A stretch of DNA of 64,000 bases from Cellulomonas sp. KRMCY2 (GTDB lineage: Bacteria; Actinomycetota; Actinomycetes; Actinomycetales; Cellulomonadaceae): the NCBI RefSeq assembly GCF_000526515.1, contig NZ_JAGF01000001.1, positions 2,790,001 to 2,854,000 of the forward strand, given 5' to 3'. The position numbers and the translations under genes were made by a program. This document shows positions 6,341 through 31,620 of this stretch, piece after piece. The notes under the pieces were generated by a model. The model ran no database searches. It worked only from the letters and a program-made list of their open reading frames with translations, and was not told where the DNA came from. The first letter of the stretch is position 1; each line of letters begins with the position of its first letter.

Positions 6341-6825
6341 CCGGATCGCTGTCGGGGCCGCCGGCTGGGCAGGCCGAGGAAGCGCGGCGTGCTGCGCCGG
6401 TAGTCCTCGTACGAGGGTCCGAAGCGGCCGACGAGGTGGGCCTCCTCGCGCCGGACCTTCACGCTGAGCACGACCGCCAGGGCCGCCCAGGCCACGAGCG
6501 GCTCCGGGCGCCGGCGCAGCAGCGCCCACCCCGCGCCGGCCAGCAGCAGCCCGGCGTAGATCGGGTTGCGGCTCAGCGCGTAGGGCCCGGAGCGCAGCAG
6601 CGGCAGGTCCGTCGGGGTCGCGACCCGTGGGGTCAGCCGCCGGCCGTGCGGGCGAGCACCCCAGACGGCGAGCGCCGCCCCCGAGGCCGTCGCGAGCGTT
6701 GCCGCCGCTGTGACCGGCGTGGGCAGCGGCCACCGGGCCCGGCCGGGGAACGCCAGTGCAGCCAGTGCGAAGGCCTGCGCTGCGACGATCCGGTCGGCTG
6801 GGTCGATGCGGTTCAGGACGGCCAT
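6316..6825 (-). CDS. Isoprenylcysteine carboxyl methyltransferase-like membrane protein
   Basis: Membrane methyltransferase of the ICMT/phospholipid methyltransferase superfamily, 169 residues, with about four hydrophobic segments. Diagnostic residues are in the C-terminal half: LLRSGPYALSRNPIYAGLLL (the RNP-Y cofactor loop), then KVRREEAHLVGRFGPSYEDY, the conserved RREE and YxxY elements. The bacterial substrate is unknown. The ATG at 6825 gives a hydrophobic first segment soon after the start. It lies 107 bases downstream of arsR on the same strand and could be cotranscribed. It is convergent with the cupin gene and overlaps its terminator repeats. Confidence 0.8.
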   Translation of the reverse strand: MAVLNRIDPADRIVAAQAFALAALAFPGRARWPLPTPVTAAATLATASGAALAVWGARPHGRRLTPRVATPTDLPLLRSGPYALSRNPIYAGLLLAGAGWALLRRRPEPLVAWAALAVVLSVKVRREEAHLVGRFGPSYEDYRRSTPRFLGLPSRRPRQRSGTEPSVRH

Positions 6826-6932
6826 CGGCCCAGCCTGCCACCGGGTGCGGCCCGGCCGATGCCGAAGCGCAGCGGGACGGCACCCAGCGGGACGGCACGC
6901 CGACGCGCGACGAGGCCGAGCGGACCGGTCAC

Positions 6933-7391
6933 CTACGGACGCACGGCGGCGGACGACAGCACCCGGGCCACGTCGTCGAGGGCGCCGGGCACCAGGGAGT
7001 AGTACGCCCACACCCCGCGCTTCTCGCGCGTCAGGAGCCCCGCCTCGACGAGCGTCTTGAGGTGGTGCGACACGGTCGGCTGGGCGAGTCCGAGCGGTTC
7101 GGTCAGGTCGCAGACGCAGGCCGTCCCGCCGTCGCGTGCGGCCACGAGCGACAGGACACGCAGCCGCGCCGGGTCGGCGATCGCCTTGAGCACCCCGGCA
7201 AGGCCGACGGCGTCCGCTGCGGAGATCGGCTCGCGCACCAGGGGAGCGCAGCACGCGACGGCGGGGATCGGTGCCGGCGGCAGGACGGCGTCCGGACCAT
7301 CGGGTCGGCAGGTGATCGCGACCGGTGCGGTGCTCGTCGGACGTGCTGTGCTCGTGGGACGTGCTGTGCTCGTCGGACGTGCTGTGCTCAT
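6933..7391 (-). CDS. arsR: ArsR/SmtB family arsenic-responsive repressor
   Basis: Winged-helix metalloregulator of 152 residues that would repress itself and arsM until As(III) binds. Seen: the recognition region LGLAQPTVSHHLKTL, the Cys-x-Cys-Asp-Leu metal site in TACVCDL, and an N-terminal Cys-Cys pair in ACCAPL that may add thiolate ligands. The N-terminus carries an unusual (TSTARP)n repeat from 18-base DNA repeats. The ATG at 7391 is supported by a leaderless promoter on the minus strand: -35 TCGACA (7427-7422), 17-base spacer, -10 CATACT (7404-7399), and 7 bases to the start codon. A start at 7409 would lie upstream of that -10. Divergent from arsM. Confidence 0.88.
   Translation of the reverse strand: MSTARPTSTARPTSTARPTSTAPVAITCRPDGPDAVLPPAPIPAVACCAPLVREPISAADAVGLAGVLKAIADPARLRVLSLVAARDGGTACVCDLTEPLGLAQPTVSHHLKTLVEAGLLTREKRGVWAYYSLVPGALDDVARVLSSAAVRP
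7335..7391 (-). repeat. 18-base tandem repeat in arsR N-terminus
   Basis: About three near-identical 18-base units (core GTGCTCGTCGGACGTGCT on the plus strand) encode repeated Thr-Ser-Thr-Ala-Arg-Pro in the first 20 residues of ArsR. It reads as a disordered extension and is a likely site of slippage-driven length change. Confidence 0.75.
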
Positions 7392-7412
7392 GGGAACCAG
7401 TATGCCCAAGAC

Positions 7413-7466
7413 ATTGACAACTGTCGATGGCTAGTGCCAGAGTTCCACCTATCGACAGTCATCGAT
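7413..7466. promoter_or_regulatory. Paired ArsR operators between arsR and arsM
   Basis: ATTGACAACTGTCGAT (7413-7428) is an imperfect dyad overlapping the -35 of arsR. ATCGACAGTCATCGAT (7451-7466) matches its reverse complement at 13 of 16 positions and lies 16 bases before the arsM start. Together they form an inverted pair suited to repression of both genes by dimeric ArsR. Confidence 0.6.
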
Positions 7467-7481
7467 GTCTGGGAGGGCACC

Positions 7482-8240
7482 ATGGAAGACACCCGGGTCG
7501 AGCAGGTCAGGGAGCGCTACGCGGCTGCGGCGCTGACCGTGCTGAACCGGTCGGAGCAGGCGTCGTGCTGCGGCGACGGCTGCTGTGACACGACGGCCGA
7601 GACGCTCGACGAGTCAGGCGCCGGGCTGTACGGGCCCGGGTACACCGACGAGCTGCCGGAGGCCGCGGTCCTGGCGAGCCTCGGCTGCGGCAACCCGCTC
7701 GTCGTCGCCGACCTGAACGTCGGCGAACGCGTCCTGGACCTGGGCTCGGGCGGTGGCATCGACGTGCTGCTCTCCGCGCGCCGCGTGGGGCCGACCGGCT
7801 TCGCGTACGGGGTCGACATGACCGCCGAGATGCTCGAGCTCGCGCGGGCGAACGCGGTCGAGGCGGGTGCCACCAACGTCGAGTTCCTCGAGGGGCGCAT
7901 CGAGGCCGTCCCGCTGCCGGACGCGTCGGTCGACGTCGTCATCTCGAACTGCGTCATCAACCTCTCGGTGGACAAGCCGGCCGTGCTCGCCGAGATGTTC
8001 CGCGTCCTGGTCCCGGGCGGACGGGTCGGTGTCTCCGACGTCGTCGCCGAGGACCACATGACAACGGCCGACCGGGCCGCGCTGGGTGACTTCGCCGGCT
8101 GCGTCTCCGGGGCGCTGACCCGCAGCGAGTACCTCGAAGGCCTCGCTGCCGCGGGCTTCGTCGATGCCGAGGTGCAGTTCACGCACGAGGCCGCGACGGG
8201 CCTGCACGGCGCCGTCGTCCGGGCCGTCAAGCCCGCCTGA
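7482..8240 (+). CDS. arsM: Arsenite S-adenosylmethionine methyltransferase
   Basis: Cytosolic enzyme that methylates As(III) with SAM to mono-, di- and trimethylarsenicals, a detoxification route. 252 residues. Seen: the N-terminal cysteine cluster ASCCGDGCC, the GYTDELP element typical of ArsM, SAM motif I VLDLGSGGGIDVLL, and downstream cysteines in VISNCVINL and FAGCVSG that supply arsenic-binding thiols. The ATG at 7482 follows GGGAGGG, a good ribosome site. Divergent from arsR across the paired operators. Its last 14 bases overlap the lysoplasmalogenase gene tail to tail. No efflux pump gene (acr3/arsB) or arsC lies nearby, so methylation is the only arsenic function seen here. Confidence 0.95.
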   Translation: MEDTRVEQVRERYAAAALTVLNRSEQASCCGDGCCDTTAETLDESGAGLYGPGYTDELPEAAVLASLGCGNPLVVADLNVGERVLDLGSGGGIDVLLSARRVGPTGFAYGVDMTAEMLELARANAVEAGATNVEFLEGRIEAVPLPDASVDVVISNCVINLSVDKPAVLAEMFRVLVPGGRVGVSDVVAEDHMTTADRAALGDFAGCVSGALTRSEYLEGLAAAGFVDAEVQFTHEAATGLHGAVVRAVKPA

Positions 8241-9955: not shown

Positions 9956-9969
9956 AGGACTTAGGTCCT
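9956..9969. promoter_or_regulatory. DevR/DosR-like box upstream of nirK operon
   Basis: AGGACTTAGGTCCT resembles the mycobacterial DevR core GGGACTWWAGTCCC (11 of 14). Its centre is about 43 bases upstream of the predicted start of transcription at 10006, the normal place for an activator overlapping the -35. Related boxes occur at 37349 and twice at 49948-49988. Confidence 0.55.
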
Positions 9970-9992: not shown

Positions 9993-10006
9993 TACGGTTA
10001 CAGGTG
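9993..10006 (+). promoter_or_regulatory. Leaderless promoter of nirK operon
   Basis: A -10 hexamer TACGGT (9993-9998) ends 7 bases before the GTG at 10006. No ribosome site is present, so translation probably starts at the first base of the message. No good -35 is visible, fitting dependence on an activator bound at 9956-9969. Confidence 0.5.
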
Positions 10007-11136
10007 TGAAAATGCCCGCCCGGCTGGCACTGCTCGCGCCGGGCGGCCTCGCCCTCGTCGCCGGGCTCGACGCCGCCCTGCTGCTGCTCGGTCTGCCGGC
10101 GCCGGTGACGACCGACCGCCTGCCGCAGGTGCACGGCGGACTGCTCGTCCTCGGCTTCGTCGGCACGGTCATCGCCCTCGAACGGTCCGTGGCGCTGCGG
10201 CGCCGGTGGGGCCACGCGGCCCCGGGCGCGCTGGGACTCGGCGCGATCGTCCTGCTGACCGCAGCCCCGCTCGCCGTCGGGCAAGGGCTGCTCGTCCTCG
10301 GGACCGTCATCCAGCTGGCCGTCTACGCGGCGCTGTGGCAGCGCCAGGCGTCCGAGGCGCTCGCGCTGCAGGTGCTCGGCGCGGTCCTCGTCGCCGGGTC
10401 GGCACTGCTGTGGTGGGGTGGCGCGCCCGTGGCCACCGTGCTGCCGTGGTTCGCCGGCTACCTCGTCCTGACGATCGCGGGTGAGCGACTCGAGCTCGCC
10501 AGGGTCGGCGCGCTGCAGCCAGGCGCCGAGCGGACCGTGCTGGGCCTCGGTCTGGTGCTGTTCACCGCCGTCGTGGCGACGACCCTGTGGCCCCAGGTCG
10601 GGCACCCGCTGCTCGGCGGGGCCCTGCTCGCGCTGGTGGGCTGGCTCGTCGTGCACGACGTCGCACGCCGCACGGTGCGGTCGACGGGTCTGCCGCGCTA
10701 CATGGCGTGGTGCCTTCTCGCCGGCTACGGCTGGCTCGTCGTCGCAGGTGGCACCTGGCTGCTGCTCGGACCGGTGCCGGAGGGCCCGGGGTACGACGCG
10801 GTGGTCCACGCGGTGTTCCTCGGCTTCACGATGTCCATGATCATGGCGCATGCGCCGGTGATCCTGCCGGCTGTGCTGACCCGCCCGCTGCCCTACCGAC
10901 CGGCCTTCTACGGGCCGGCCGCGTTGCTGCACGTGTCGTTGCTGCTGAGAGTGGCCGGCGGTGACCTGTACGGGCAGGGCTGGGCGCTGCAGACCGGAGG
11001 CGCGCTGAACGTCGTCGCCCTCCTGCTGTTCGTCGCGCTCGCTGCCTGGTCGACGGTCCGGGGGGCGAGGACCGCACCGCAGGCGGGCCGCACGGTCGGT
11101 CCGGTGCCCGAGCAGCGGGTCGAGGTGGTCCGGTGA
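10006..11136 (+). CDS. NnrS-like polytopic membrane protein
   Basis: Membrane protein of 376 residues with about ten to twelve hydrophobic segments and histidines inside or near them: LPQVHGGLLVLGFVGT, AVVHAVFLGFTMSMIMAHAP and LLHVSLLLRVAGG. This resembles the NnrS haem/copper membrane family linked to denitrification and NO stress, but I call it NnrS-like only. The GTG at 10006 is supported by a leaderless promoter; an ATG at 10012 is an alternative. The stop overlaps the start of the nirK fusion by 4 bases (GTGA), so the two are coupled. A role in NO handling or NirK maturation is inferred from that linkage. Confidence 0.7.
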   Translation: MKMPARLALLAPGGLALVAGLDAALLLLGLPAPVTTDRLPQVHGGLLVLGFVGTVIALERSVALRRRWGHAAPGALGLGAIVLLTAAPLAVGQGLLVLGTVIQLAVYAALWQRQASEALALQVLGAVLVAGSALLWWGGAPVATVLPWFAGYLVLTIAGERLELARVGALQPGAERTVLGLGLVLFTAVVATTLWPQVGHPLLGGALLALVGWLVVHDVARRTVRSTGLPRYMAWCLLAGYGWLVVAGGTWLLLGPVPEGPGYDAVVHAVFLGFTMSMIMAHAPVILPAVLTRPLPYRPAFYGPAALLHVSLLLRVAGGDLYGQGWALQTGGALNVVALLLFVALAAWSTVRGARTAPQAGRTVGPVPEQRVEVVR

Positions 11137-13772
11137 GGACCCGCTGGCACGTCCGCGTCAACGCCCTGGTGCTGGGCTGGCTGGTCGCTGCCGCCGTGGT
11201 CGCGACGGCGCACCGCAGCATCCCGCAGGCGCCGTGGCTGATGGTCCACCTGCTGCTGCTCGGCGCGGTGAGCACCGCGATCCTGATCTGGAGCGCGCAC
11301 TTCGCCGAGGCCGTACGGCGCAGGCCGTTGCGTGGGGCGTACCTCGGTCAGGGCCGGCGTCTGGCTCTGCACACGGCCGGGGCGCTCGCCGTCGTGGGCG
11401 GCCTGCTCACCGGCACCTGGTCCGTGGTCGTCGGTGGTTCGGTGCTCGTCGGGGTCGCCGGCCTGTGGCATGCGGCGGTGCTCGTCGACCAAGGGCGGGG
11501 TGCGCTCGGTGTCCGGCTCGGCTGGACGGCCTGGTACTTCGTCGTCGCGTCACTCGCCCTGCCGGTCGGCGCCGGGCTCGGGATCGTGCTCGCACGCTCG
11601 GACCTGGCCGGCGACGTTGCGGCGCGCACCTACGTCGCGCACGTGGTGGTGATGCTTCTCGGCTGGGTCGGTCTGACGGTGGTCGGAACCATGGTCACCC
11701 TGTGGCCGACGATGCTGCGCGTCCAGCTCGCCGGCGACGCCCTGACCGGCGCTCGGCACGGGCTCGCGGTGCTCGGCGCGGGGTTGCTCGTCGTCCTCGG
11801 CGGTACCGCCACCGGACTTCTCGCCGTGGCGGCCGGCGGCCTGGTCCTCTACCTGCTCGGGCTCCTGCGCACGTCCTGGCCGCTCCTGGTCGAGACCAGG
11901 CGCCGTCTGCCGGACTCCTTCGCGTCCCGGTCGGTCGGCCTCGCCTGGGCATGGCTCGCGCTGTCGGTCGCACTGTGGGCCGTGCTGATCGGCAGCGCGT
12001 CCGGCTGGGCGGTCGCGCAGGTGCGCATCGGTGGGCTGCTCGGCCCGCTCGCCGTCGGCTTCGCCGCACAGGTGCTGCTCGGCTCGCTGAGCCACCTCGG
12101 CCCGATGGTGCTCGGTGGCGGGCCGTCCGCGGTCCGCGCGACGCGGGCCGTCGTCGAGCGGGGCGGCACAGCGCGTCTCGTCCTGGTCAACGTCGGCCTG
12201 GCGCTCTACCTCCTGCCGACACCGAGCCTCGTCCGGATCGGCACGTCGATGCTCGTGCTCGGTGCGCTCGCCGCGACGCCCGTCCTCCTGGTCCGTGCGG
12301 CCGTCGTCGCGCGGCGGCTGCGCGGGACGCCACAGACCGGCGCCGCTGCTGCGCCCCACGAGGGCCGGCCACCGGTCGAGCTGCTCACTGCCCGCCGCCG
12401 TCCGACCGGCCCGGCGCTCGCCGCCGTCGGTGCCCTGGCCCTCGTCGTCGCCGGTGGGGTGGCGGCCGACCCGGCAGCGGTCGGGCTCGGGACCGCGCCC
12501 GATGCGGGCGTCGAGGCCAGCGGACGCGTGGTCGAGGTCGAGGTCGAGGCGCGCGACCTGCGCTTCTCGCCGTCCTCGATCGAGGTGGCCGCCGGGGACG
12601 GGCTCGTCCTGGTCGTGACGAACGTCGACGACACGGTGCACGACCTGGTCCTCGACACGGGTGCCGGCTCGGGGCGGCTGGCCGCCGGTGCCACGGCCCG
12701 GGTCGACGTCGGCGTCGTCGGTCGCGGGATCGACGGCTGGTGCTCCGTGGCCGGTCACCGGCAGATGGGGATGGTGCTCGAGGTCGTCGTCACCGGGGCG
12801 GCCGGGCACCCGGCCGACGCCGGCGCCGTCGACGCGGCCGACGGCGCCATGGACCACGACGCGACCGGCACCGGCTCCTCGGCCGCCGACGACCTCGACC
12901 TCATGGCAGCGCCGGCTGAGGGCTTCACGGCCTACGACCCGGTCCTGGCGCCGGCGTCCGACCAGACCGTGCACCGGGTGACCCTCGAGGTCACGGAGGT
13001 GGAGCAGGAGGTCGCGCCCGGCGTGACGCAGACCCGGTGGACGTTCGGCGGCACGGCACCAGGACCGACGCTGCACGGCCGGGTCGGCGACACGTTCGAG
13101 ATAACCCTGGTCAACGACGGCTCGCTCGGCCACTCGATCGACTTCCACGCCGGTTCGCTCGCCCCGGACGAGCCGATGCGCACGATCGAGCCGGGCGACG
13201 AGCTGACCTACACCTTCACGGCCACGCGGTCGGGCATCTGGATGTACCACTGCTCGACGATGCCGATGTCCCTGCACATCGCGAACGGCATGTTCGGTGC
13301 GGTCGTCATCGACCCGCCCGGTCTGCCCGAGGTGGATCGCGAGTACCTGCTCGTCCAGTCCGAGCTGTACCTCGGTGAGCAGGGCGGGATCGCCGACGCC
13401 GCCAAGATCATGGCCGAGGCGCCGGACGCCGTCGCGTTCAACGGCTACGCCGCCCAGTACGACCACGACCGTCTGCCGGCCAGGGTGGGGGAGCGGGTCC
13501 GGATCTGGGTGCTCGATGCCGGGCCCAACCGGCCCAGTGCCTTCCACGTGATCGGCGGCCAGTTCGACACGGTGTACCTCGAGGGCGCCTACCTGCTGGG
13601 CGGGCCGGAGGCCGGTGCGTCGACCGGCGGGTCGCAGGTCCTGGGTCTGAGCCCGGCGCAGGGCGGGTTCGTCGAGCTGAGCCTGCCGCAGGCGGGCAGC
13701 TACCCGTTCGTCTCGCACCTGATGGTCGACGCCGAGCGCGGTGCGCACGGCTTCCTGGCGGTCACCGACTGA
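11133..13772 (+). CDS. nirK: Membrane-cupredoxin-copper nitrite reductase fusion (NirK)
   Basis: An 879-residue protein joining three parts. Residues 1 to about 450 hold around 11-12 hydrophobic segments, similar in style to the upstream NnrS-like protein. Residues about 465-555 form a cupredoxin with type-1 copper ligands His503, Cys537, His542 and a Met (545 or 547). Residues about 600-879 are the two-domain copper nitrite reductase (nitrite to NO). Copper ligands are visible: His667 and His672 in GHSIDFHAG with catalytic Asp670, His706-Cys707 in MYHCSTMPMSLH, His715, Met720, and His862 in FVSHLMV. The catalytic His805 lies in AFHVIGGQFD. The cupredoxin may pass electrons from membrane quinol or cytochrome to NirK on the outer face (inferred). 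Coupled to the upstream gene by a GTGA overlap. Confidence 0.9.
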   Translation: MRTRWHVRVNALVLGWLVAAAVVATAHRSIPQAPWLMVHLLLLGAVSTAILIWSAHFAEAVRRRPLRGAYLGQGRRLALHTAGALAVVGGLLTGTWSVVVGGSVLVGVAGLWHAAVLVDQGRGALGVRLGWTAWYFVVASLALPVGAGLGIVLARSDLAGDVAARTYVAHVVVMLLGWVGLTVVGTMVTLWPTMLRVQLAGDALTGARHGLAVLGAGLLVVLGGTATGLLAVAAGGLVLYLLGLLRTSWPLLVETRRRLPDSFASRSVGLAWAWLALSVALWAVLIGSASGWAVAQVRIGGLLGPLAVGFAAQVLLGSLSHLGPMVLGGGPSAVRATRAVVERGGTARLVLVNVGLALYLLPTPSLVRIGTSMLVLGALAATPVLLVRAAVVARRLRGTPQTGAAAAPHEGRPPVELLTARRRPTGPALAAVGALALVVAGGVAADPAAVGLGTAPDAGVEASGRVVEVEVEARDLRFSPSSIEVAAGDGLVLVVTNVDDTVHDLVLDTGAGSGRLAAGATARVDVGVVGRGIDGWCSVAGHRQMGMVLEVVVTGAAGHPADAGAVDAADGAMDHDATGTGSSAADDLDLMAAPAEGFTAYDPVLAPASDQTVHRVTLEVTEVEQEVAPGVTQTRWTFGGTAPGPTLHGRVGDTFEITLVNDGSLGHSIDFHAGSLAPDEPMRTIEPGDELTYTFTATRSGIWMYHCSTMPMSLHIANGMFGAVVIDPPGLPEVDREYLLVQSELYLGEQGGIADAAKIMAEAPDAVAFNGYAAQYDHDRLPARVGERVRIWVLDAGPNRPSAFHVIGGQFDTVYLEGAYLLGGPEAGASTGGSQVLGLSPAQGGFVELSLPQAGSYPFVSHLMVDAERGAHGFLAVTD

Positions 13773-13796: not shown

Positions 13797-14882
13797 TCAC
13801 CGGGGATAGGTCTCGAGGCCCGCCACGTCGACAGTCAGGCGGACCGCGGCACCGGGTCGCAGGGCCCCGGCCCGGTCGGGCCCGACGTCGGTCGCACGGA
13901 CCTCGGCGACCGCCGGTGGCGTCCCTGCGACCTCGACCCGCAGGTGCTCGCCCCAGGGCGTGATCGTCGCCACGGTGCCCGCCCAGCCGGGCAGGTCGAT
14001 GTCCGACGGCGGCGCGACCGTCAGGTGGATCGCCGAGGGCCGGACGGCGACGTGCACCGCCCCGGGCGGGCTCCCGCTCCGTGGCACCCGCAGGACGACA
14101 CCACCGGCGAGGGTCAGGCGGTCGACGTCGCCCTCGCGGTCCAGGCGACCCGCCATGAGGTTGACGCCGAGCAGCCGGGCGACGTACTGCGTCGCCGGCT
14201 GCCGGACCACGTCGGCCGGCGGTCCTTGCTGGACGATGCGGCCGTCCTCGAGCACGGCGAGACGGTCGGCGAGCACCAGGGCGTCGACGAGGTCGTGCGT
14301 GACCAGCAGGCACGGCCCGGCGAAGGCGCCGAGATGGTCGGCCAGCGCGCGCTGCACCTCGCCCCGCGCCTGGGCGTCGAGCGCCGCGAGCGGCTCGTCG
14401 AGGAGCAGGGCGCGCGGATCGGTCGCCAGCGCACGTGCGATCGCCACCCGTTGCGCCTGACCGCCCGACAGGTGCGCGGGGCGCCGGTGGCCGAGGTCGC
14501 CGACACCCAGGCGGTCCAGCCACTGCCGGGCCAGCCGGTCGGCCTGACCGCGCCGCGCACCTGCCGCGCGCGGTCCGAACGCCACGTTCTCGACGACGGA
14601 CAGGTGCGGGAACAGCCGGTGGTCCTGGAAGACGGTGCCGATGCGGCGTTCCGCCGCCGGCCGGACGTACCGCGCCGCGACGTCGTCGAGCACCGTCCCG
14701 CCGAGTGTCAGCCGCCCGCCGGCCAGTGGCTCGAGCCCGCCGATCGTGCGCAGCACCGTCGACTTGCCGGCACCGTTCGGTCCGAGCAGGGCGACGACCT
14801 CCCCGGGGGCGACGGACAGGTCGAGGTCGGCGGTGAAGGGCCCTCGGCGGACGGTCCCGGCCAGGTGCAGCGTGCTGGTCAT
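13797..14882 (-). CDS. modC: Molybdate ABC transporter ATP-binding protein
   Basis: ATPase that powers molybdate import through ModB, 361 residues. Walker A is GPNGAGKST, the Q-loop is [12 protein letters not shown], the signature is [15 protein letters not shown], Walker B is [12 protein letters not shown], and the H-loop is LLVTHD. The C-terminal third (about residues 285-361) is a TOBE domain that binds oxyanion and adjusts activity. The ATG at 14882 overlaps the modB stop by 4 bases. The gene ends 24 bases from the nirK stop, tail to tail. Confidence 0.92.
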
Positions 14883-15729
14883 CGGACCGGTCCCGTGGCC
14901 GGGACCGCACCCGCGCCGGCACCGACCCAGCGCTCCCGCAGGCCGACGAGCACCGCGATGCAGACCAGCAGGAGCACGAGGCTCAGCGCGATCGCTGCAT
15001 CCGGGTCCTGGTCCAGGGCGTGGTAGACGCTCAGCGGCAGGGTCTGCGTGCGGCCGGGGAAGCTGCCCGCGAACGTGACAGTCGCACCGAACTCACCCAG
15101 GGCGCGGGCCCAGGCGAGCACCGCACCGGCGGCGACCGACGGTGCGATCAGTGGCAGGGTCACCCGGCGCAGCACCGTGAGCCGCGAGGCGCCGAGACAC
15201 GCCGCCGCCTCCTCGAAGCGCTGGTCGGCCCCCGCAGGGCACCCTCGACGGTCACGACGAGGAACGGCATCGCGACGAAGGTCTGGGCCAGCACGACGGC
15301 GGCCGGTGTGAACGGCAGCGAGACGCCGAACCACCCGTCCAGCCAGGTGCCGACGATGCCGGCGCGTCCGAAGACGACGAGCAGGGCGACGCCGCCGACG
15401 ACGGGCGGCAGGACGAGCGGCACGGTGACCACGGCGCGCAGCAGCGTGCGTCCCGGGAGCCGGCCGCGCGCGAGCACCCACGCGAGCGGGACGCCGAACG
15501 CCACGGCGCCGACAGTCGCCAGTGCCGAGGTCCACAGCGACAGGACCAGCGACTGACGCACGGCCGGCTCGCCGAGGATCGCGCCGAGCTCGGACCACGG
15601 CGCGCGCACCACGAGGCCGACCAGCGGCAGGGCGAGGAACGCCAGGCCGACGGCGGCCGGTGCCACCGCCAGGGCTGGGGCGTGACTGGTCAGGACCCGG
15701 GCCCCGCCCGCCCGGTGCTGGGTCGTCAC
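14879..15729 (-). pseudogene. modB: Molybdate ABC transporter permease ModB, frameshifted
   Basis: Permease of the molybdate importer, split over two frames. The N-terminal part reads from the GTG at 15729 to [10 protein letters not shown] near 15237. The C-terminal part continues in the next frame from [17 protein letters not shown] to [10 protein letters not shown] and stops at 14879. The break falls at a run of five C (15229-15233; G on the coding strand). One more G would restore a full ModB of about 280 residues with the EAA loop [20 protein letters not shown]. All else (start overlapping modA by GTGA, stop overlapping modC by ATGA) is intact, which argues for a sequencing indel or a very recent mutation. 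If real, molybdate import by this system is lost. Confidence 0.85.
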
Positions 15730-16661
15730 GGGATGACGAATCCGGCGTCGCGCAGGGCCCGGGTACCGCGTGGCGAGAGCACGTGGTCGACGAACGCGCG
15801 GGCCACCGGGTCCTGGGCGGCGGCAGGCAGCACCACGATCGGGTAGTCCGTCGTGGTGTTGAGGCGCGCCGGGATCTCGATCCCGTGGATCTCGCCGTCG
15901 AGCACGGCCAGCGAGGTCGGGCGGACGTCGGAGGCGTACACGAGCCCCGCATCGACCTCACTGAGGATGACCTTCGTCAGCACCCCGCCGACGTCCTGCT
16001 CGAGGGTCACCGGGTCGCGGTCGATCCCGGCAGCCGCGAGCACGTCGCGCGCGACGGATCCGCAGGGCACCTGCACCTGGCACATCGCGAACGTGACGTC
16101 GCGACGGGCCAGGTCCTCGATCGACGTGACCTCGCCGGGGTTGGTGGTCGGCACGGCGATCGCGAGGGTGTTCTGGGCGAACACGACCGGCTCCGCGTCA
16201 TCGATGCCGGGCGTCCCCACCGCACGTAGCCCGCCGAGTGCGATCGCCATCGTGGACTCGCTCGCGGTGGCGAGGACGTCGGCGGGTGCGCCGGCGGCGA
16301 CCTGGGCGGCCAGGCCCGAGCTCGGCCCGAGGCCGATCGTGACGGTGACGCCGGGGTTGGCGGCCTCGAAGCTGTCCGCGAGCACCGCGAACACGTCGGC
16401 GAGCGAGCTCGCGGCGAGCACCGTGATCTCGCCGCCGAGCGGCGTCGGTCTCGGCGCAGGGGTCGGTCGGGTCTCGGGAGAGGGTGTCGGCACCGCAGTG
16501 GGGGAGTCGGCGGCCGGGGCGGCTGCGGTCGAGGTGCCGCCGACCGTCGTCCCGGGCGCCTGCCGGTCGCCGACGACGCCGGACCAGAGCACGGCGCCCG
16601 CGACCCCCAGCGCGACGACGGCGAGCGTCGCGAGCGCAGCGGTCCGGCGTCGCCGGGTCAT
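15726..16661 (-). CDS. modA: Molybdate-binding protein
   Basis: Extracytoplasmic molybdate/tungstate-binding component, 311 residues. The ModA fold is visible from about residue 80: [40 protein letters not shown], and the C-terminal [20 protein letters not shown]. The N-terminus is a basic stretch and a single hydrophobic segment (about 8-32) without a lipobox cysteine, then a Pro/Thr/Ala linker (about 38-75). The protein is therefore probably tethered by an uncleaved anchor or released by signal peptidase I rather than lipidated. The ATG at 16661 overlaps the molbindin stop by 4 bases. Confidence 0.9.
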
Positions 16662-23465: not shown

Positions 23466-24470
23466 TCAGCCGCCGATCGCGCTCATCGGCCGGTCGGGCT
23501 GCAAGAAGCTCGGGTCGTCGATGTCGTGGCCCGGCTTCTTGCCGGCCAGGCCGGTCCGGATCGCCGCGGCCAGCGCATCGTCGTCGGCCCCCTCGCGCAG
23601 CAGCGTGCGCAGGTCGGTCTCGGTCCGGGCGAACAGGCAGGACCGCAGCTGGCCGTCTGCGGTCAGCCGGACCCGGTCGCACGAGCCACAGAACGGAGCG
23701 GTCACCGAGGCGATCACGCCGACGGTCGCCGGTCCGCCGTCGACGTACCAGAGCTCGGCGGGCGCCGAGCCCCGGCCTGGTACCTCGGTGAGCTCGAACG
23801 CGGTGCGCAGCGCGGCGAGGATCTCGGTCTGGGTGACCATCTGAACGCGATCCCAGGTGTGCCCGGCGTCCAGCGGCATCTGCTCGATGAACCGCATCTG
23901 GTAGCCGTGGTCGACAGCGAAGCGCACCAGCGGGACCAGTGCGTCGTCGTTCACGCCACGCATCGCGACGGCGTTGAGCTTGATCGGCGCGAAGCCGACC
24001 GAGTCCGCCGCGGCGATGCCGGCGAGGGTGTCGTGCAGGCGGTCGCGCCGGGTCAGGGCCGTGAAGCGCTCGCGGTCGAGCGTGTCGAGGCTGATGTTGA
24101 CCCGGGTGAGCCCGGCGTCGTGCAGCGGGGCCGCGAGCGCCGGCAGGCGCAGGGCGTTGGTGGTCAGGGAGACCTCGGGTGAGCCGTTCGGCCCGTCGAG
24201 CGCGGCGATGCGACGCACGACGTCGACGACGTCGGGACGCAGCAGGGGCTCACCACCGGTCAGCCGGACCTCCGTGATGCCCTGGCCGACGGCGACCCGC
24301 GTGATCCGGACCAGCTCGTCGGTGCTGAGCATCGTCGAGCCGGGCAGCCACGGGACGCCCTCGGCAGGCATGCAGTAGGTGCAGCGCAACGAGCAGCGGT
24401 CGGTCAGCGAGATCCGCAGGTCACGGTGCACGCGACCGAACCCGTCGACCAGCGGTGCGAGCGCGCTCAT
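23466..24470 (-). CDS. moaA: GTP 3',8-cyclase MoaA
   Basis: Radical SAM enzyme that starts Mo-cofactor synthesis from GTP. 334 residues. The N-terminal cluster CxxxCxxC is Cys26, Cys30, Cys33 (CSLRCTYC). The second cluster that binds GTP is in FCGSCDRVRLTADGQLRSCL. TGGEPLLRPD and VNISLDTLD are the SAM and barrel elements. It ends in Gly-Gly, needed by MoaA. The ATG at 24470 overlaps the moaE stop by ATGA. Last gene of mogA-moaE-moaA on the minus strand, convergent with moaD. Confidence 0.95.
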   Translation of the reverse strand: MSALAPLVDGFGRVHRDLRISLTDRCSLRCTYCMPAEGVPWLPGSTMLSTDELVRITRVAVGQGITEVRLTGGEPLLRPDVVDVVRRIAALDGPNGSPEVSLTTNALRLPALAAPLHDAGLTRVNISLDTLDRERFTALTRRDRLHDTLAGIAAADSVGFAPIKLNAVAMRGVNDDALVPLVRFAVDHGYQMRFIEQMPLDAGHTWDRVQMVTQTEILAALRTAFELTEVPGRGSAPAELWYVDGGPATVGVIASVTAPFCGSCDRVRLTADGQLRSCLFARTETDLRTLLREGADDDALAAAIRTGLAGKKPGHDIDDPSFLQPDRPMSAIGG

Positions 24471-24898
24471 GCCGAACCGACCCACACGTGCGAGCCGTCG
24501 GCCAGCACCTCGCGCTTCCACACCGGGAGCTCGGCCTTGACCGCCTCGACCAGATCGCTGCACACAACGAAGGCCAGGGCACGGTGCGCCGTGGACACCA
24601 CCGCGACGACCGCCGCCTCGCCGACGACGAGCCGTCCGACGCGGTGGCTCACCGCGACGCCGAGCACGCCGTCGCGCCCCGCTGCCTCGCGCGCCAGGCG
24701 CTCGAGCACCGCAGCGGCGTCGGGGTGCGCCGAGTACTCCAGGGCGACCACCTCGCCGTCGACGGACGGGTCGTTGTCGCGGACCTGCCCGACGAAGCAC
24801 GCCACCGCCCCGGCGCCCGGGTCGCCGACCGCCACGAGGTGCGCCGTGACGTCGAGCGGGCCGTCGCTGACCTGGGCGAGCGGGTGTGCGGGGCTCAT
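24467..24898 (-). CDS. moaE: Molybdopterin synthase catalytic subunit MoaE
   Basis: Large subunit of molybdopterin synthase, 143 residues; transfers two sulfurs from MoaD thiocarboxylate to precursor Z. Seen: VACFVGQVRDND, VVALEYSAHPDAAAVLERLA, VSHRVGRLVVGEAAVVAVVS and the catalytic lysine region LPVWKREVLADG. ATG at 24898 overlaps the mogA stop (ATGA); its own stop overlaps moaA. Confidence 0.95.
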   Translation of the reverse strand: MSPAHPLAQVSDGPLDVTAHLVAVGDPGAGAVACFVGQVRDNDPSVDGEVVALEYSAHPDAAAVLERLAREAAGRDGVLGVAVSHRVGRLVVGEAAVVAVVSTAHRALAFVVCSDLVEAVKAELPVWKREVLADGSHVWVGSA

Positions 24899-25413
24899 CG
24901 GTGGTCACCGCCGGCCAGCTGGTCGAGCACGTGGTCCAGCAGGGGGAGCAGCACCGAGACGCCCTGCTCGACGCCGGCGGTCGAGCCGGGAAGGTTGACC
25001 ACCACGGCGCCGGCGTCGGTCACCCCGGCCAGGCCTCGGGACAGGACGGCGGAGGCGACCTGCTCGGCGCCCGAGCGGCGCAGGGCCTCGGCGAGACCGG
25101 GGAGCTCGCGGTCGAGCACGGGCCGGGTGCCCTCGGGTGTCCTGTCCCGCGGGCCGACACCCGTCCCGCCGCTGGTCAGGACCACCCGAGCGCCTGTGGC
25201 CAGGGCGGTCCGGAGCGCGCCGGCGACGCTCTCGGCGCCGTCCGGGACGATCACCGGCGCACCGACCCGGTAGCCCGCCGCGCGCAGCAGCTCCGCCGCA
25301 CGCGCGCCGGATCGATCGGTCGCCTCGCCCCGCGCACAACGGTCCGAGGCCACCACGACGGCGGCCAGGACAGGGGCCCGGTCGGCAGCGGGGTCGGTGA
25401 CCGGTGGGTTCAT
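24895..25413 (-). CDS. mogA: Molybdopterin adenylyltransferase MogA/MoaB
   Basis: Adenylates molybdopterin before MoeA-driven metal insertion. 172 residues. Seen: AVVVASDRCARGEATDRSG, the family loop VVLTSGGTGVGPRDRTPEGT and VVNLPGSTAGVEQGV. First gene of a three-gene minus-strand operon with moaE and moaA, each overlapping the next by 4 bases. Only 63 bases separate it from the divergent SufR-like regulator at 25477, so that protein may control the operon. Confidence 0.92.
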   Translation of the reverse strand: MNPPVTDPAADRAPVLAAVVVASDRCARGEATDRSGARAAELLRAAGYRVGAPVIVPDGAESVAGALRTALATGARVVLTSGGTGVGPRDRTPEGTRPVLDRELPGLAEALRRSGAEQVASAVLSRGLAGVTDAGAVVVNLPGSTAGVEQGVSVLLPLLDHVLDQLAGGDHR

Positions 25414-26372: not shown

Positions 26373-26438
26373 CCGACGGACGTTGACAGACTGATGCCGT
26401 CGCGGCGGCCCGCTGCCCTGGTACGACCCGGAGGAACG

Positions 26439-27746
26439 ATGACGTTCAAGCTGGAGCCCCGCGTCGACCTCGCGCGGTGGGACCCCGAGGACCCGGAGCA
26501 CTGGGACTCGACGTTCGCCTGGCGCACGTTGTGGATCACCACCTACAACCTCATGCTGGCGTTCTGCGTCTGGTACCTGGTCAGCGCGATCGCCCCGCGG
26601 CTCAACGACATCGGCTACGACCTCACGCGCGCCGAGCTCTACTGGCTGGTGGCCGTCCCCGGCCTGGCCGGCGGGTCGATGCGGCTCATCTACATGTTCC
26701 TGCCCCCGGTCCTGGGCACCCGCACGCTGGTCGGCGGCACCGCGACCCTCATGCTGCTGCCGATGGTCGGCTGGGCGTTCGCGGTCCGCGACCCCGGGAC
26801 GCCCTACGCGGTGCTCCTGCTGCTCGCCACCGCGGCCGGCGTCGGCGGTGGCGCCTTCTCCGGGTTCATGCCCTCGACCAGCTACTTCTTCCCCAAGCGG
26901 ATGGCCGGGACGGCGCTGGGCCTGCAGGCCGGGATCGGCAACTTCGGGGTCAGCCTCATCCAGTTCCTCGCACCCTGGATCGTGGGCTTCGGCCTGCTCG
27001 GCACCACCGTCCTGACGCCGCAGCAGCGGGCCGACGGCAGCGAGATCTGGCTGCACAACGTCGGGCTCGTGCTGATCCCCTGGGTGATCCTCGGCGCGAT
27101 CCTGGCCGGCGTCTTCCTGCGCAGCGTCCCGATCACCGCGAACTTCCGCCAGCAGCTCGACATCTTCCGCGAGAAGCACACCTGGGTCATGACCGCGATC
27201 TACCTGATGACCTTCGGGGCCTTCAGCGGGTTCGCCGCCCAGCTCGGCCTGATCATCGTCAACGAGTACGGCAGCTTCGCCGATGCCCCGGACCCCCTCA
27301 AGTTCGCCTTCCTCGGCCCGCTCATCGGCTCCGCCACACGGGCCGCCTGGGGGCCGCTGTGCGACCGGTTCGGCGGGGCGATCTGGACCCTCGTCGCCGG
27401 GATCGGCATGACGATCAGCACGGTCTTCACGCTCTTCTTCCTCAGCCCCACGGCCGTCGGCCAGTTCACCTGGTTCCTGACCGGGATGCTGGGTGTCTTC
27501 TTCTTCGCCGGGATCGGCAACGCCGGGACCTTCAAGCAGATGCCGATGATCTTCCCCAAGCGGCAGGCCGGTGGGGTCATCGGCTTCACCGCCTCGATCG
27601 CCGCCTTCGGCCCGTTCCTCGTCGGCATCGCGCTCTCGATGGTGACGCCGCGCGCGTTCTTCATCGGGTGCGCGGTGTTCTTCACCTTCTGCACCGCCCT
27701 GACCTGGCACTACTACGCACGCCCTGGGGCACCGAAGCCCAGCTGA
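26439..27746 (+). CDS. narK: Nitrate/nitrite MFS transporter, NarK family
   Basis: Twelve-segment transporter of 435 residues for nitrate uptake and/or nitrite export. Seen: the nitrate signature pieces GVGGGAFSGFMPSTSYFFPK and GIGNAGTFKQMPMIFPKRQA, and AGIGNFGVSLIQFLAPW, typical of NarK/NarU. The ATG at 26439 follows GGAGG by 5 bases. It lies 55 bases before narG and is read in the same direction; a CRP-like box is upstream. Confidence 0.93.
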   Translation: MTFKLEPRVDLARWDPEDPEHWDSTFAWRTLWITTYNLMLAFCVWYLVSAIAPRLNDIGYDLTRAELYWLVAVPGLAGGSMRLIYMFLPPVLGTRTLVGGTATLMLLPMVGWAFAVRDPGTPYAVLLLLATAAGVGGGAFSGFMPSTSYFFPKRMAGTALGLQAGIGNFGVSLIQFLAPWIVGFGLLGTTVLTPQQRADGSEIWLHNVGLVLIPWVILGAILAGVFLRSVPITANFRQQLDIFREKHTWVMTAIYLMTFGAFSGFAAQLGLIIVNEYGSFADAPDPLKFAFLGPLIGSATRAAWGPLCDRFGGAIWTLVAGIGMTISTVFTLFFLSPTAVGQFTWFLTGMLGVFFFAGIGNAGTFKQMPMIFPKRQAGGVIGFTASIAAFGPFLVGIALSMVTPRAFFIGCAVFFTFCTALTWHYYARPGAPKPS

Positions 27747-27801
27747 CCGGTCGATGGGCCGGCCCGGGAGCCGGCGAGAAGCCCACGCGAAGGAGCAGCA
27801 G

Positions 27802-30800
27802 ATGAACCCGACAGCCATCCCGACGCAGGGGGCAGCACCCGCGGGTCTCGACGGCCCGGCATCGGACCTCCTGCTGCGCCTGGGCCGGTACCTGCGCAAG
27901 GGCGAGGTCTCGGCCGACCTGCGCACGCTGCACCAGATCGGTGGACGGGACGCGGACGTCTTCTACCGGGACCGCTGGAGCCACGACAAGGTGGTCCGCT
28001 CGACCCACGGGGTCAACTGCACCGGGTCGTGCTCGTGGAAGGTGTACGTCAAGGACGGGATCATCACCTGGGAGTCGCAGCAGACGGACTACCCGACGGT
28101 CGGTCCGGACAGCCCCGAGTACGAGCCCCGGGGCTGTCCCCGCGGTGCGGCGTTCAGCTGGTACACGTACTCCCCGACCCGGGTCCGGTACCCGTACGTG
28201 CGTGGGCTGCTGCTCGACATGTACCGCGAGGCCAAGGCCCGCACGGGCGACCCCGTCGAGGCGTGGCGCAGCATCGTCGACGACCCCGAGCTCTCGCGGC
28301 GCTACAAGGCGGCCCGCGGCAAGGGCGGCCTCGTGCGGGCCACCTGGGACGAGGCGACCGAGATGGTCGCGGCCGCGCACGTGCACACGATCAAGGCCTA
28401 CGGGCCGGACCGCATCGCGGGCTTCTCGCCGATCCCCGCGATGTCGATGGTGTCGCACGGTGCCGGCGCGCGCTTCTACTCGCTCATCGGCGGCGCGATG
28501 CTCTCGTTCTACGACTGGTACGCCGACCTGCCGGTCGCCTCGCCGCAGGTCTTCGGCGACCAGACCGACGTGCCGGAGTCGGGGGACTGGTGGGACGCCG
28601 GCTACCTGATCATGTGGGGCTCGAACGTCCCGGTGACCCGCACCCCGGACGCGCACTGGATGACCGAGGCGCGGTACCGCGGGCAGAAGGTCGTGGTGGT
28701 CTCACCGGACTACGCGGACAACGTCAAGTTCGCCGACGAGTGGCTCGCCGCCCAGCCCGGGACCGACGGCGCGCTCGCGATGGCCATGGGTCACGTGACG
28801 CTCAAGGAGTTCTTCGTCGACCGGCAGGTCCCGTACTTCACCGACTACGTCAAGAGGTACACCGACCTGCCGTTCCTGGTCCGCCTCGAGGAGCGCGACG
28901 GTGCGTACGTCGCCGGCAAGTTCCTGACCGAGTCCGACCTGGCCGCCTCGGGGCCGGTTCCGACGTCGGAGAACGCGGAGTTCAAGACGGTGCTGATCGA
29001 CGCCCGTACCGGGCAGGCGGTCGTGCCGAACGGGTCGCTCGGCCACCACTACGGCGAGGCGGGTGCCGGGAAGTGGAACCTCGACCTCGGCGACGTCGAC
29101 CCGCTGCTGAGCCTGATCGACGCACCGGAGAGTGCCGACCGGGTCGCCGACGCGGATGCGGCCGCCGGCCGACCGGCGGTCCAGACGGTCGAGGTCGACC
29201 TGCCGCGGTTCGACACGCTGGACGGCGCTGCCGCGGTGATCCGTCGCGGCGTGCCGGTCCGTCGGGTCGCCGGGCACCTGGTCACCACCGTCTTCGACCT
29301 GCTGCTCGCGCAGTACGGCGTGGGCCGCGACGGTCTGCCGGGCCGGTGGCCCACCGGGTACGACGACGCGTCCCAGCCGTGCACGCCCGCCTGGCAGGAG
29401 CAGTTCACCGGGGTCCCGGCGGCCAAGGCCGAGCGGATCGGCCGGGAGTTCGCGGCCAACGCCGAGGAGTCCAGGGGTCGGTCGATGATCCTCATGGGCG
29501 CCGGCACCAACCACTGGTTCCACTCCGACACCATCTACCGCGCCTTCCTGACCCTGACCACGCTGACCGGCTGCCAGGGCGTCAACGGCGGCGGCTGGGC
29601 GCACTACGTCGGCCAGGAGAAGGTCCGCCCGCTGACGGGGTACACCCAGTACGCCAACGCACTGGACTGGTCGCGCCCGCCGCGGAACATGATCCAGACG
29701 GCGTACTGGTACCTGCACACCGACCAGTACCGCTACGACGCGTTCGGCGCCGACACGCTCGCCGCGGCCACGGCCGGGGGTCAGCTGGCCGGGAAGACGA
29801 CCGCCGACGTGATCGCGCAGTCGGCCCGGATGGGCTGGATGCCCTCGTACCCGACGTTCGACCGCAGCCCGCTGCAGGTCGCCGACGACGCCGAGGCCGC
29901 CGGCCTGCCGGTGGCGCAGTACGTGCCGGCCGAGCTCAAGGCCGGTCGTCTCCGCTTCGCCTCGGAGGACCCGGATGCACCGGAGAACTTCCCGCGCGTG
30001 CTGACGATCTGGCGGGCGAACCTGCTGGGCAGCTCGGCCAAGGGCAACGAGTACTTCCTCAAGCACCTGCTCGGCACGGACTCCAACCTGCGGGCGACCG
30101 AGGCCCCGCCCGAGGCGCGGCCGCGGGACGTCGTCTGGCACGACGAGGCACCCACGGGCAAGCTCGACCTGCTGCTGTCCATGGACTTCCGGATGACGAG
30201 CACGACGATCTACTCCGACATCGTGCTGCCGGCCGCGACCTGGTATGAGAAGCACGACCTCAACACCACAGACATGCACCCGTTCGTGAACTCGTTCAGC
30301 CCGGCGATCGCCCCGCCGTGGCAGACCCGGACCGACTTCGACATCTTCCACACGATCGCCCGCGCGTTCTCCGAGCTCGCGGCGACCCACCTGGGCGTCC
30401 GCAAGGACGTCGTCGCCGTGCCGCTCACGCACGACACGCCGGACGAGATGGCCAACCCGCACGGGCGGGTCGAGGACTGGAAGGCCGGTGACTGCGAGCC
30501 GGTGCCGGGCCGGACCATGCCCAAGCTCGTCGTCGTCGAACGTGACTACGGGGCCGTCGCCGCGAAGATGGCGGCGCTCGGTCCGCTCGTCGACACCCTC
30601 GGTCTGACGACCAAGGGCGTGACCTTCACCGTCGACAAGGAGGTCGAGTACCTGCGGCACAAGAACGGCACCGCGCGCAAGACCCGCAACGGGGTCGCGG
30701 ATGGACGGCCGCTGCTGAGCCGAGACGTGCACGCCTGCGAGGCGATCCTCGCGTTGTCCGGCACCACGAACGGCCGGCTCGCCGTGCAGGGGTTCCACAC

Positions 30801-31584
30801 GCTCGAGAAGCGCACCGGAACCCTGATGGCCGACCTGGCTGCCGAGCACGAGGGCAAGCAGGTGACCTTCGCCGACACCCAGGCCGGCCCGACGACTGTC
30901 ATCACCTCGCCGGAGTGGTCCGGCACGGAGCACGGCGGGCGTCGGTACTCGCCGTTCACCATCAACGTCGAGCGGCTCAAGCCGTGGCACACACTGACCG
31001 GCCGGATGCACTTCTTCCTCGACCACGACTGGATGGCCGAGATCGGCGAGAACATGCCGGTCTTCCGGCCTCCGCTGAACATGCCGGCCCTGTTCGGCGA
31101 GCCGGAGATCGGCGAGACCGGGGCGCTGGGCGTCACGGTCCGGTACCTGACCCCGCACAACAAGTGGTCGATCCACTCCGAGTACCAGGACAACCTGTTC
31201 ATGCTCTCGTTGTCCCGCGGTGGCCCGACGATCTGGATGAGCAACCTCGACGCCGACAAGGTCGGGATCAAGGACAACGACTGGATCGAGGCCGTCAACC
31301 GCAACGGCATCGTCGTCGCCAGGGCGGTGGTCTCGCACCGGATGCCCGAGGGCACGGTGTACATGCACCACGCCCAGGACCGGCTGATCGACGTCCCGCG
31401 GTCCGAGACCAACGGGAAGCGCGGCGGCATCCACAACTCCCTGACCCGGTTGATGATCAAACCGAGCCATCTCATCGGCGGCTACGCCCAGCTGTCCTTC
31501 GCATTCAACTACCTCGGCCCGACCGGCAACCAGCGCGACGAGGTCACGATGATCCGTCGCCGTTCGCAGAAGGTCGAGTACTGA
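27802..31584 (+). CDS. narG: Respiratory nitrate reductase alpha subunit
   Basis: Catalytic subunit of membrane-bound nitrate reductase, 1260 residues, binding Mo-bisMGD and one [4Fe-4S] cluster; reduces nitrate to nitrite on the cytoplasmic side. The FS0 ligands are His69, Cys73, Cys77 and Cys112 (HGVNCTGSC, RGCPRG), the NarG-type His/Cys3 set. The region SGDWWDAGYLIMWGSNVPVT corresponds to that holding the Mo-ligand Asp in E. coli NarG. Other cofactor motifs: GWAHYVGQEKVRPLTGY and FRMTSTTIYSDIVLPAATWY. ATG at 27802 with AAGGAG nine bases upstream. No Tat signal, as normal for NarG. Operon narKGHJI. Confidence 0.97.
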   Translation: MNPTAIPTQGAAPAGLDGPASDLLLRLGRYLRKGEVSADLRTLHQIGGRDADVFYRDRWSHDKVVRSTHGVNCTGSCSWKVYVKDGIITWESQQTDYPTVGPDSPEYEPRGCPRGAAFSWYTYSPTRVRYPYVRGLLLDMYREAKARTGDPVEAWRSIVDDPELSRRYKAARGKGGLVRATWDEATEMVAAAHVHTIKAYGPDRIAGFSPIPAMSMVSHGAGARFYSLIGGAMLSFYDWYADLPVASPQVFGDQTDVPESGDWWDAGYLIMWGSNVPVTRTPDAHWMTEARYRGQKVVVVSPDYADNVKFADEWLAAQPGTDGALAMAMGHVTLKEFFVDRQVPYFTDYVKRYTDLPFLVRLEERDGAYVAGKFLTESDLAASGPVPTSENAEFKTVLIDARTGQAVVPNGSLGHHYGEAGAGKWNLDLGDVDPLLSLIDAPESADRVADADAAAGRPAVQTVEVDLPRFDTLDGAAAVIRRGVPVRRVAGHLVTTVFDLLLAQYGVGRDGLPGRWPTGYDDASQPCTPAWQEQFTGVPAAKAERIGREFAANAEESRGRSMILMGAGTNHWFHSDTIYRAFLTLTTLTGCQGVNGGGWAHYVGQEKVRPLTGYTQYANALDWSRPPRNMIQTAYWYLHTDQYRYDAFGADTLAAATAGGQLAGKTTADVIAQSARMGWMPSYPTFDRSPLQVADDAEAAGLPVAQYVPAELKAGRLRFASEDPDAPENFPRVLTIWRANLLGSSAKGNEYFLKHLLGTDSNLRATEAPPEARPRDVVWHDEAPTGKLDLLLSMDFRMTSTTIYSDIVLPAATWYEKHDLNTTDMHPFVNSFSPAIAPPWQTRTDFDIFHTIARAFSELAATHLGVRKDVVAVPLTHDTPDEMANPHGRVEDWKAGDCEPVPGRTMPKLVVVERDYGAVAAKMAALGPLVDTLGLTTKGVTFTVDKEVEYLRHKNGTARKTRNGVADGRPLLSRDVHACEAILALSGTTNGRLAVQGFHTLEKRTGTLMADLAAEHEGKQVTFADTQAGPTTVITSPEWSGTEHGGRRYSPFTINVERLKPWHTLTGRMHFFLDHDWMAEIGENMPVFRPPLNMPALFGEPEIGETGALGVTVRYLTPHNKWSIHSEYQDNLFMLSLSRGGPTIWMSNLDADKVGIKDNDWIEAVNRNGIVVARAVVSHRMPEGTVYMHHAQDRLIDVPRSETNGKRGGIHNSLTRLMIKPSHLIGGYAQLSFAFNYLGPTGNQRDEVTMIRRRSQKVEY

Positions 31585-31620
31585 CGTGGCCGGGACGAGC
31601 GCACCAGGGAGCGCGACCTC

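What the first reader, a model, noticed from the sequence alone, without database searches (positions are those of the whole stretch)
10006..13772. NirK carried on a membrane domain and cupredoxin, coupled to an NnrS-like gene
Residues about 1-450 are polytopic membrane, 465-555 a cupredoxin with a full type-1 copper set (His503, Cys537, His542, Met), and 600-879 a NirK with all type-1 and type-2 ligands. The upstream gene overlaps by GTGA and is also polytopic with intramembrane histidines. Together they could form a self-contained quinol-to-nitrite unit at the outer membrane face, without a separate cytochrome or azurin donor.
Basis: partly seen in the sequence, partly recalled or inferred. 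Interest (0 to 1): 0.75.

Follow-up and report, generated by a model that had tools for sequence, protein, structure and literature searches.

The report
Nitrite reductase on oxidase-like membrane scaffold
This bacterium's copper nitrite reductase is built onto a membrane protein that, like the gene in front of it, is predicted to resemble the core of a respiratory oxidase with haem-binding positions, which suggests how such enzymes might get electrons straight from the membrane.

Summary
The domain order (about 400 residues of membrane, cupredoxin, NirK) is already in print for Actinobacteria, with the membrane part "of unknown function" (PMC4770552, passages). New here is what the membrane parts look like. 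The upstream protein (P1) is predicted to have 12 transmembrane helices and the heme-copper-oxidase (HCO) subunit I fold: the 11 leading Foldseek hits come from entries holding an oxidase or quinol-NOR (best E 1.2e-3). The NirK membrane domain (P2mem) also has 12 helices, an internal repeat and a modest collinear match to P1; two stand-alone relatives hit the COX1 profile below its cut-off. Invariant histidines fall where HCOs hold low-spin haem: helices II and X in P1, II and VI in P2mem. The conserved histidines of the HCO binuclear centre are missing. Most likely both are b-haem modules passing electrons from menaquinol through the cupredoxin to NirK. Haem and quinol binding are inferred, not shown, and direct profile matches of P1 to HCO or NnrS are at control level. 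P1 lies directly upstream in 73 of 78 testable close relatives, but in a broad sample only 2 of 7 genomes with the fused gene have it. Verdict: known architecture, new functional reading.

The parts
9956..9969 (.). AGGACTTAGGTCCT palindrome, 36 bases before the GTG start of P1; resembles the DosR/DevR box (consensus recalled)
   Evidence: Sequence. GGAC-N4-GTCC is found upstream of P1 in 16 of 77 sequences (the window and 15 relatives), among them the window and the 7 closest relatives with P1, at -48 to -66 of the P1-homologous start; 0.8% of shuffles. Against the recalled consensus it has 3 mismatches, which is chance level in the window
10006..11136 (+). P1: 12-TM membrane protein, predicted HCO subunit I fold; candidate bis-His haem site H43 (TM II) and H268 (TM X); E59, E160, H282 at one equivalent position of the three middle helices
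11133..13772 (+). P2: membrane domain - TM13 - cupredoxin - NirK, one polypeptide of 879 aa
11133..12323 (+). P2 residues 1-397 (P2mem): 12-TM domain with an internal repeat of about 133 residues; invariant H39 (TM II) and H170 (TM VI)
12408..12467 (+). P2 residues 426-445: 13th transmembrane helix leading to the redox domains, predicted outside
   Evidence: K+R in loops 21 inside, 3 outside
12528..12794 (+). P2 residues 466-554: cupredoxin, type-1 copper set H503 C537 H542 M547
12969..13769 (+). P2 residues 613-879: NirK core with type-1 (H667, C707, H715, M720) and type-2 (H672, H706, H862) ligands

Best explanation
The pair is a membrane-bound nitrite reductase. P1 and the membrane domain of P2 are distant paralogues with the 12-helix HCO subunit I fold. 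Each lacks the oxygen/NO-reducing centre but keeps one bis-histidine site that most likely holds a low-spin b haem near the outer face: H43/H268 (helices II and X, the HCO low-spin pair) in P1, and H39/H170 (helices II and VI, the equivalent pair one arc further round) in P2. Electrons from menaquinol would pass through these haems to the cupredoxin copper, then to the NirK type-1 and type-2 coppers, where nitrite becomes NO. It resembles oxidase subunits I + II, with a cupredoxin on the outer side of a haem core, but with electrons flowing outward. Shown by computation: domains, ligands, helices, P1 fold, conserved residues, gene coupling. Inferred: haem, quinol binding, electron path and direction, and joint action of P1 and P2.
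For: P1 model pLDDT 94.1; its 11 leading PDB hits (prob 0.99-1.00; TM-score by query 0.69 for 3mk7 cbb3, 0.63 for 1occ, 0.52 for qNOR 8zgp) come from entries holding an oxidase or quinol-NOR; the best probability in the other 39 rows shown is 0.69 (a rhodopsin, TM-score 0.30). P2mem: 12 TM, internal repeat prob 85, collinear with P1 at E 1.3e-4, prob 54, reversed controls 0.1 and 0.2 (with narrower alignments 44 and 6). The COX1 profile hits P2mem relatives in 2 of the 9 genomes of that sample that have one, at 4.5e-6 and 2.0e-5, below cut-off. H39 and H170 are invariant in the 59-row P2mem alignment and H43 and H268 in 78 P1 rows; H43 and H268 also in 7 remote P1 relatives. hhalign puts P2 H170 on the first His of the CcoN helix X HVH (prob 14.8, E 0.0018). 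P2mem goes with NirK-type genes: 27 of 43 against 10 of 253 genomes at E 1e-30. P1 directly upstream in 73 of 78 testable loci, once in one open frame. Nitrate reductase alpha, beta and gamma genes lie in the same window.
Against: No coordinates were available, so ligand distances were not measured. No Foldseek E-value for P1 is at or below 0.001. Direct profile comparison of P1 with CcoN, COX1 and NnrS is at the level of reversed controls (prob 0.1-0.7 against 0.1-0.3), including the alignment that puts H268 on the second CcoN helix X His (prob 0.4, E 0.14); P2mem with COX1 gives 5.6 against 1.7 reversed, and with NnrS 0.6 against 0.4. H170 also aligns with a helix II His of CcoN (prob 3.3). 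One P2mem member hits ccoN at 0.0039, but one member also hits an unrelated family (7TMR-DISM) at 0.0011. No quinol site was identified. P1 is absent from 5 of 7 genomes with fused P2 in the broad sample. The own genome has a bc-type cytochrome b and a COX1, so a conventional donor exists.
Confidence: 0.42

Rival explanations
1. The membrane domain is mainly an anchor or stability domain, and NirK is fed by the cytochrome bcc complex through the fused cupredoxin, as assumed for Intrasporangium calvum.
For: Own genome has a cytochrome b of bc type; the I. calvum paper places NirK downstream of bc1 (PMC6349771, passages); P1 is dispensable.
Against: An anchor would not need two invariant intramembrane histidines, also kept in stand-alone relatives. 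The passages seen do not test the donor directly.
Confidence: 0.27
2. P1 and P2mem act like NnrS: they bind haem and/or copper to handle NO, copper loading or haem sensing near NirK, not to donate electrons.
For: P1 shares two invariant His positions with 11 NnrS sequences; an NnrS gene neighbours nirK in Sinorhizobium pSymA; the own genome shows one PF00115 match, a COX1, and no NorB or qNor, so NO must be dealt with otherwise; no constant partner was seen beside stand-alone P2mem genes.
Against: Pfam NnrS does not match; hhalign to NnrS is at control level. Covalent fusion to the cupredoxin suggests an electron path.
Confidence: 0.22
3. The membrane part reduces the NO made by NirK, as a divergent NO reductase.
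For: HCO fold of P1; no canonical NOR found in the own genome with PF00115.
Against: No His conserved at 80% or more in TM7 of either protein, none in TM6 of P1, none in TM10 of P2mem.
Confidence: 0.04

Closest known systems
Actinobacterial NirK with membrane and cupredoxin extension (Propionibacterium acnes type; Helen et al. 2016, PMC4770552, passages)
   Same: Same domain order, about 900 aa, C-x4-H-x4-M cupredoxin
   Different: That paper calls the membrane part of unknown function; the passages seen do not mention the upstream partner, an HCO fold or haem-type histidines
HCO superfamily subunit I (CcoN, COX1, qNOR)
   Same: 12-helix fold of P1 by Foldseek; P1 His at the helix II and X positions; cupredoxin outside, as in subunit II (recalled)
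   Different: No conserved binuclear-centre His; P2mem has its pair in helices II and VI; sequence similarity very weak or absent
NnrS (PF05940)
   Same: Invariant His at the same two positions as P1 (H67 and H312 in S. meliloti NnrS); beside nirK in Sinorhizobium
   Different: No Pfam match; NnrS has a second conserved His in helix II and an invariant H334, where P1 has no His in the weak alignment
Hyphomicrobium denitrificans three-domain NirK (2dv6)
   Same: Best Foldseek match of P2 (E 1.7e-30): N-terminal cupredoxin on NirK
   Different: No membrane domain in that chain; rmsd 13 A over 445 columns, so domain placement differs or is not resolved

Membership tests
Copper nitrite reductase (NirK) | Type-1, type-2 and catalytic Asp/His residues | tested here: met
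   invariant in 86 rows except M720 (90% or more)
Copper nitrite reductase (NirK) | Score over the NCBIfam TIGR02376 cut-off | tested here: not met
   161.9 against 296.3 bits; the 50 structure matches shown are NirK entries
Copper nitrite reductase (NirK) | Trimer and nitrite reductase activity | not testable with these tools
   -
HCO superfamily subunit I (P1) | 12-TM subunit I fold | tested here: met
   Model and Foldseek, prob 0.99-1.00, E 1.2e-3 to 0.21
HCO superfamily subunit I (P2mem) | 12-TM subunit I fold | tested here: inconclusive
   12 helices, repeat, collinearity with P1 and two weak COX1 hits; its own fold search showed only NirK rows
HCO superfamily subunit I (P1) | Low-spin haem ligands in helices II and X | tested here: met
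   H43 and H268 by helix and Gly offset; haem itself not tested. P2mem has helices II and VI instead
HCO superfamily subunit I (P1 and P2mem) | Binuclear centre (His of helices VI and VII, proximal His in X) | tested here: not met
   No His conserved at 80% or more in TM7 of either, in TM6 of P1 or in TM10 of P2mem
NnrS (PF05940) | Match to the Pfam model | tested here: not met
   No match up to E 1 or up to E 10 among 24 members
NnrS (PF05940) | Invariant His in TM II (Gly-7) and TM X (Gly-5) | tested here: met
   P1 only (11 NnrS sequences)
DosR/DevR regulon | DosR-type box | tested here: inconclusive
   Conserved palindrome but 3 mismatches to the recalled consensus, chance level in the window

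The most novel reading that the evidence does not exclude
An HCO-fold electron donor running outward: two paralogous 12-helix oxidase-like scaffolds, each with one b haem, one in the usual low-spin pore (P1, helices II/X) and one in an inter-arc pore that oxidases leave without haem (P2, helices II/VI; pore anatomy recalled), make a menaquinol:cupredoxin oxidoreductase welded to NirK, with the E59/E160/H282 set of P1 as a symmetric inner-side quinol, proton or metal site.
Probability: 0.3. Interest if true: 0.82.

Novelty: new variant of a known kind. Interest (0 to 1): 0.6.

Why it matters
How NirK receives electrons in single-membrane bacteria is, to my knowledge, open, and the actinobacterial membrane extension was described as of unknown function. 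A haem-bearing oxidase-like scaffold would be a direct quinol-to-nitrite route, would extend the HCO fold to a donor role, and gives point predictions (four histidines) that one spectrum can test.

Tried and rejected
Modelling P1 and P2 together through the natural single-frame case L094: MAFFT kept placing P1 rows on P2mem or the reverse, so that job was not sent and P1 was modelled alone. Direct profile-profile kinship of P1 with HCO or NnrS: at control level. PDB sequence search with both membrane profiles: one chance hit at E 2.3, and none. A constant replacement for P1 in P1-less loci: none among ten neighbours scanned (two Cryobacterium loci share an MMPL gene). A constant partner of stand-alone P2mem: none among 20 neighbours scanned, several of which had no Pfam match; 4 of 20 loci have a split NirK gene next door (L128, L129, L133, L137). 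P2mem on plasmids: none at E 1e-5. PF02167 in the own genome: none, but only one of 14 control genomes rang, so it says nothing. PF05940 in the own genome and in 198 Actinomycetota: none over cut-off, but the controls rang nowhere. Promoter/terminator scan: nothing. NO reductase reading: disfavoured for lack of the conserved metal ligands.
Full report
What is there. P1 (10006-11136) and P2 (11133-13772) overlap by GTGA. P2 has a 12-helix membrane domain (P2mem), a 13th helix, a cupredoxin and a NirK core, both copper parts with complete ligand sets. Loop charges put both amino termini inside and the redox domains outside (P1: 16 K+R inside, 1 outside; P2: 21 and 3). The window also holds genes for nitrate reductase alpha, beta and gamma subunits, so nitrite is probably made nearby.

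Known part. Helen et al. 2016 (PMC4770552, passages) state that the roughly 900-residue NirK of Propionibacterium acnes has a 400-residue predicted membrane domain of unknown function plus a cupredoxin, that all actinobacterial NirK in their set have the cupredoxin, and that not all have the membrane domain. Paper searches combining NirK or NnrS with membrane, fusion, quinol and HCO terms listed no title or abstract that assigns a function to that domain. One search listed 30 of 155 papers and one search listed 15 of 61, on HCO pore anatomy, found none. Only open-licence papers are held, and only listings and passages were seen.

Fold. P1 was modelled from 78 sequences (pLDDT 94.1, pTM 0.90) with 12 helices. 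Foldseek against the PDB gives 11 leading hits with probability 0.99-1.00, from entries holding cbb3, aa3 or mitochondrial oxidases or a quinol-NOR; that each chain is subunit I is inferred from its length or recalled. TM-score by P1 length is 0.69 for 3mk7 and 0.63 for 1occ. No hit reaches E 0.001. P2 (pLDDT 92.1, pTM 0.70) has helices at 2-25, 33-62, 69-93, 96-123, 128-153, 160-195, 203-227, 230-257, 263-288, 292-327, 345-360 and 365-397 (a short helix 330-341 not counted). Its own fold search returned only NirK entries in the 50 rows shown, so the HCO fold of P2mem rests on indirect evidence: an internal repeat of about 133 residues (prob 85) and collinear similarity to P1 (E 1.3e-4, prob 54; reversed profiles 0.1 and 0.2) with a broad alignment, against 44 and 6 with a narrower one; and COX1-profile hits at P2mem genes in 2 genomes (G059 4.5e-6, G085 2.0e-5), of 9 in that 41-genome sample that have a P2mem match. 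A third weak COX1 hit (G070, 1.8e-4) is not shown to be a P2mem gene. One of 24 members hits ccoN at 0.0039, but one member hits an unrelated family at 0.0011, so such hits weigh little. Direct hhalign of P1 with CcoN, COX1 and NnrS is at the level of reversed controls.

Histidine positions. In CcoN helix X two conserved histidines lie 7 and 5 residues before a conserved Gly (H333, H335, G340; 4 sequences); that they bind the high- and low-spin haems is recalled. P1 has H43 = G50-7 in helix II and H268 = G273-5 in helix X, which matches the HCO low-spin pair. P2mem has H39 = G44-5 in helix II and H170 = G177-7 in helix VI: the same pair type, one arc on. NnrS has H67 = G74-7 (invariant), H69 = G74-5 (82%) and H312 = G317-5 (invariant; 11 sequences). 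Choosing these glycines is partly after the fact. Which pore each residue faces follows from symmetry and recalled HCO anatomy, not from coordinates. P1 also has E59, E160 and H282 at Gly+9 of the three middle helices: E59 and H282 are invariant and E160 is over 90% in 78 rows, and all three are invariant in a 10-row alignment with 7 remote relatives.

Distribution. In named genomes 409 stretches matched a pattern, 313 encode relatives and the best 80 were kept. P1 lies upstream in 73 of 80; two of the seven without it (L030, L046) have under 130 bases of upstream sequence, leaving 73 of 78. In L082 P1 is partial. Gaps are -11 to +136 bases in 72; L094 (Georgenia) has both in one open frame, a single case that could be a sequencing error. 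This set is biased to close relatives. In a sample of 296 Actinomycetota genomes P2mem matches in 43 and P1 in 10; the fused gene is in 7, with P1 in 2 of these. P1 and P2mem share 6 genomes. Stand-alone P2mem is thus a separate family. P2mem presence goes with a NirK-type match: 41 of 43 against 77 of 253 at E 1e-3 (this includes other multicopper oxidases), 27 of 43 against 10 of 253 at 1e-30; without the 7 fused genomes 20 of 36. Relatedness of genomes was not corrected for. G016 has P1, P2mem and cupredoxin-NirK as three frames in the same order.

Reading. The simplest account is a haem-bearing, oxidase-like electron entry fused to its acceptor. It is an inference from fold and invariant residues. 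The main rivals are supply by the bcc complex and an NnrS-like NO or copper role.

Noticed in passing
window 9956-9969: Palindrome GGAC-N4-GTCC upstream of P1, kept in the 7 closest relatives with P1 and in several Cellulomonas; possibly a hypoxia/NO regulator site
   Followed up: partly
P1 residues 59, 160, 282 (window 10180-10182, 10483-10485, 10849-10851): Conserved Glu, Glu, His at equivalent positions of the three middle helices, the two Glu followed by conserved Arg
   Followed up: partly
window 26394-34783: MFS transporter (narK-like by position) followed by nitrate reductase alpha, beta and gamma genes; moaA-like gene at 23466-24908 on the minus strand
   Followed up: partly
window 13797-16661 (-): Genes that read like a molybdate ABC transporter, convergent with P2 (from the translations, not scanned)
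   Followed up: no
window 6756-8240: ArsR-like and arsenite-methyltransferase-like genes (from the translations, not scanned)
   Followed up: no
L207 5712-7469, L208 5606-7363: P1 relatives with an extra N-terminal stretch of about 230 residues; L208 scanned, no Pfam match
   Followed up: partly
L085 5653-5973: DUF2249 gene directly before the P1-less fused gene in Cryobacterium; DUF2249 also near NnrS and nirK in Sinorhizobium pSymA
   Followed up: no
L130 1060-3147 and 5818-7119: Stand-alone P2mem about 2.7 kb from a gene with a nitrous-oxide-reductase propeller repeat
   Followed up: no
whole own genome: Single PF00115 match (a COX1), so no NorB or qNor seen although NirK should make NO
   Followed up: partly
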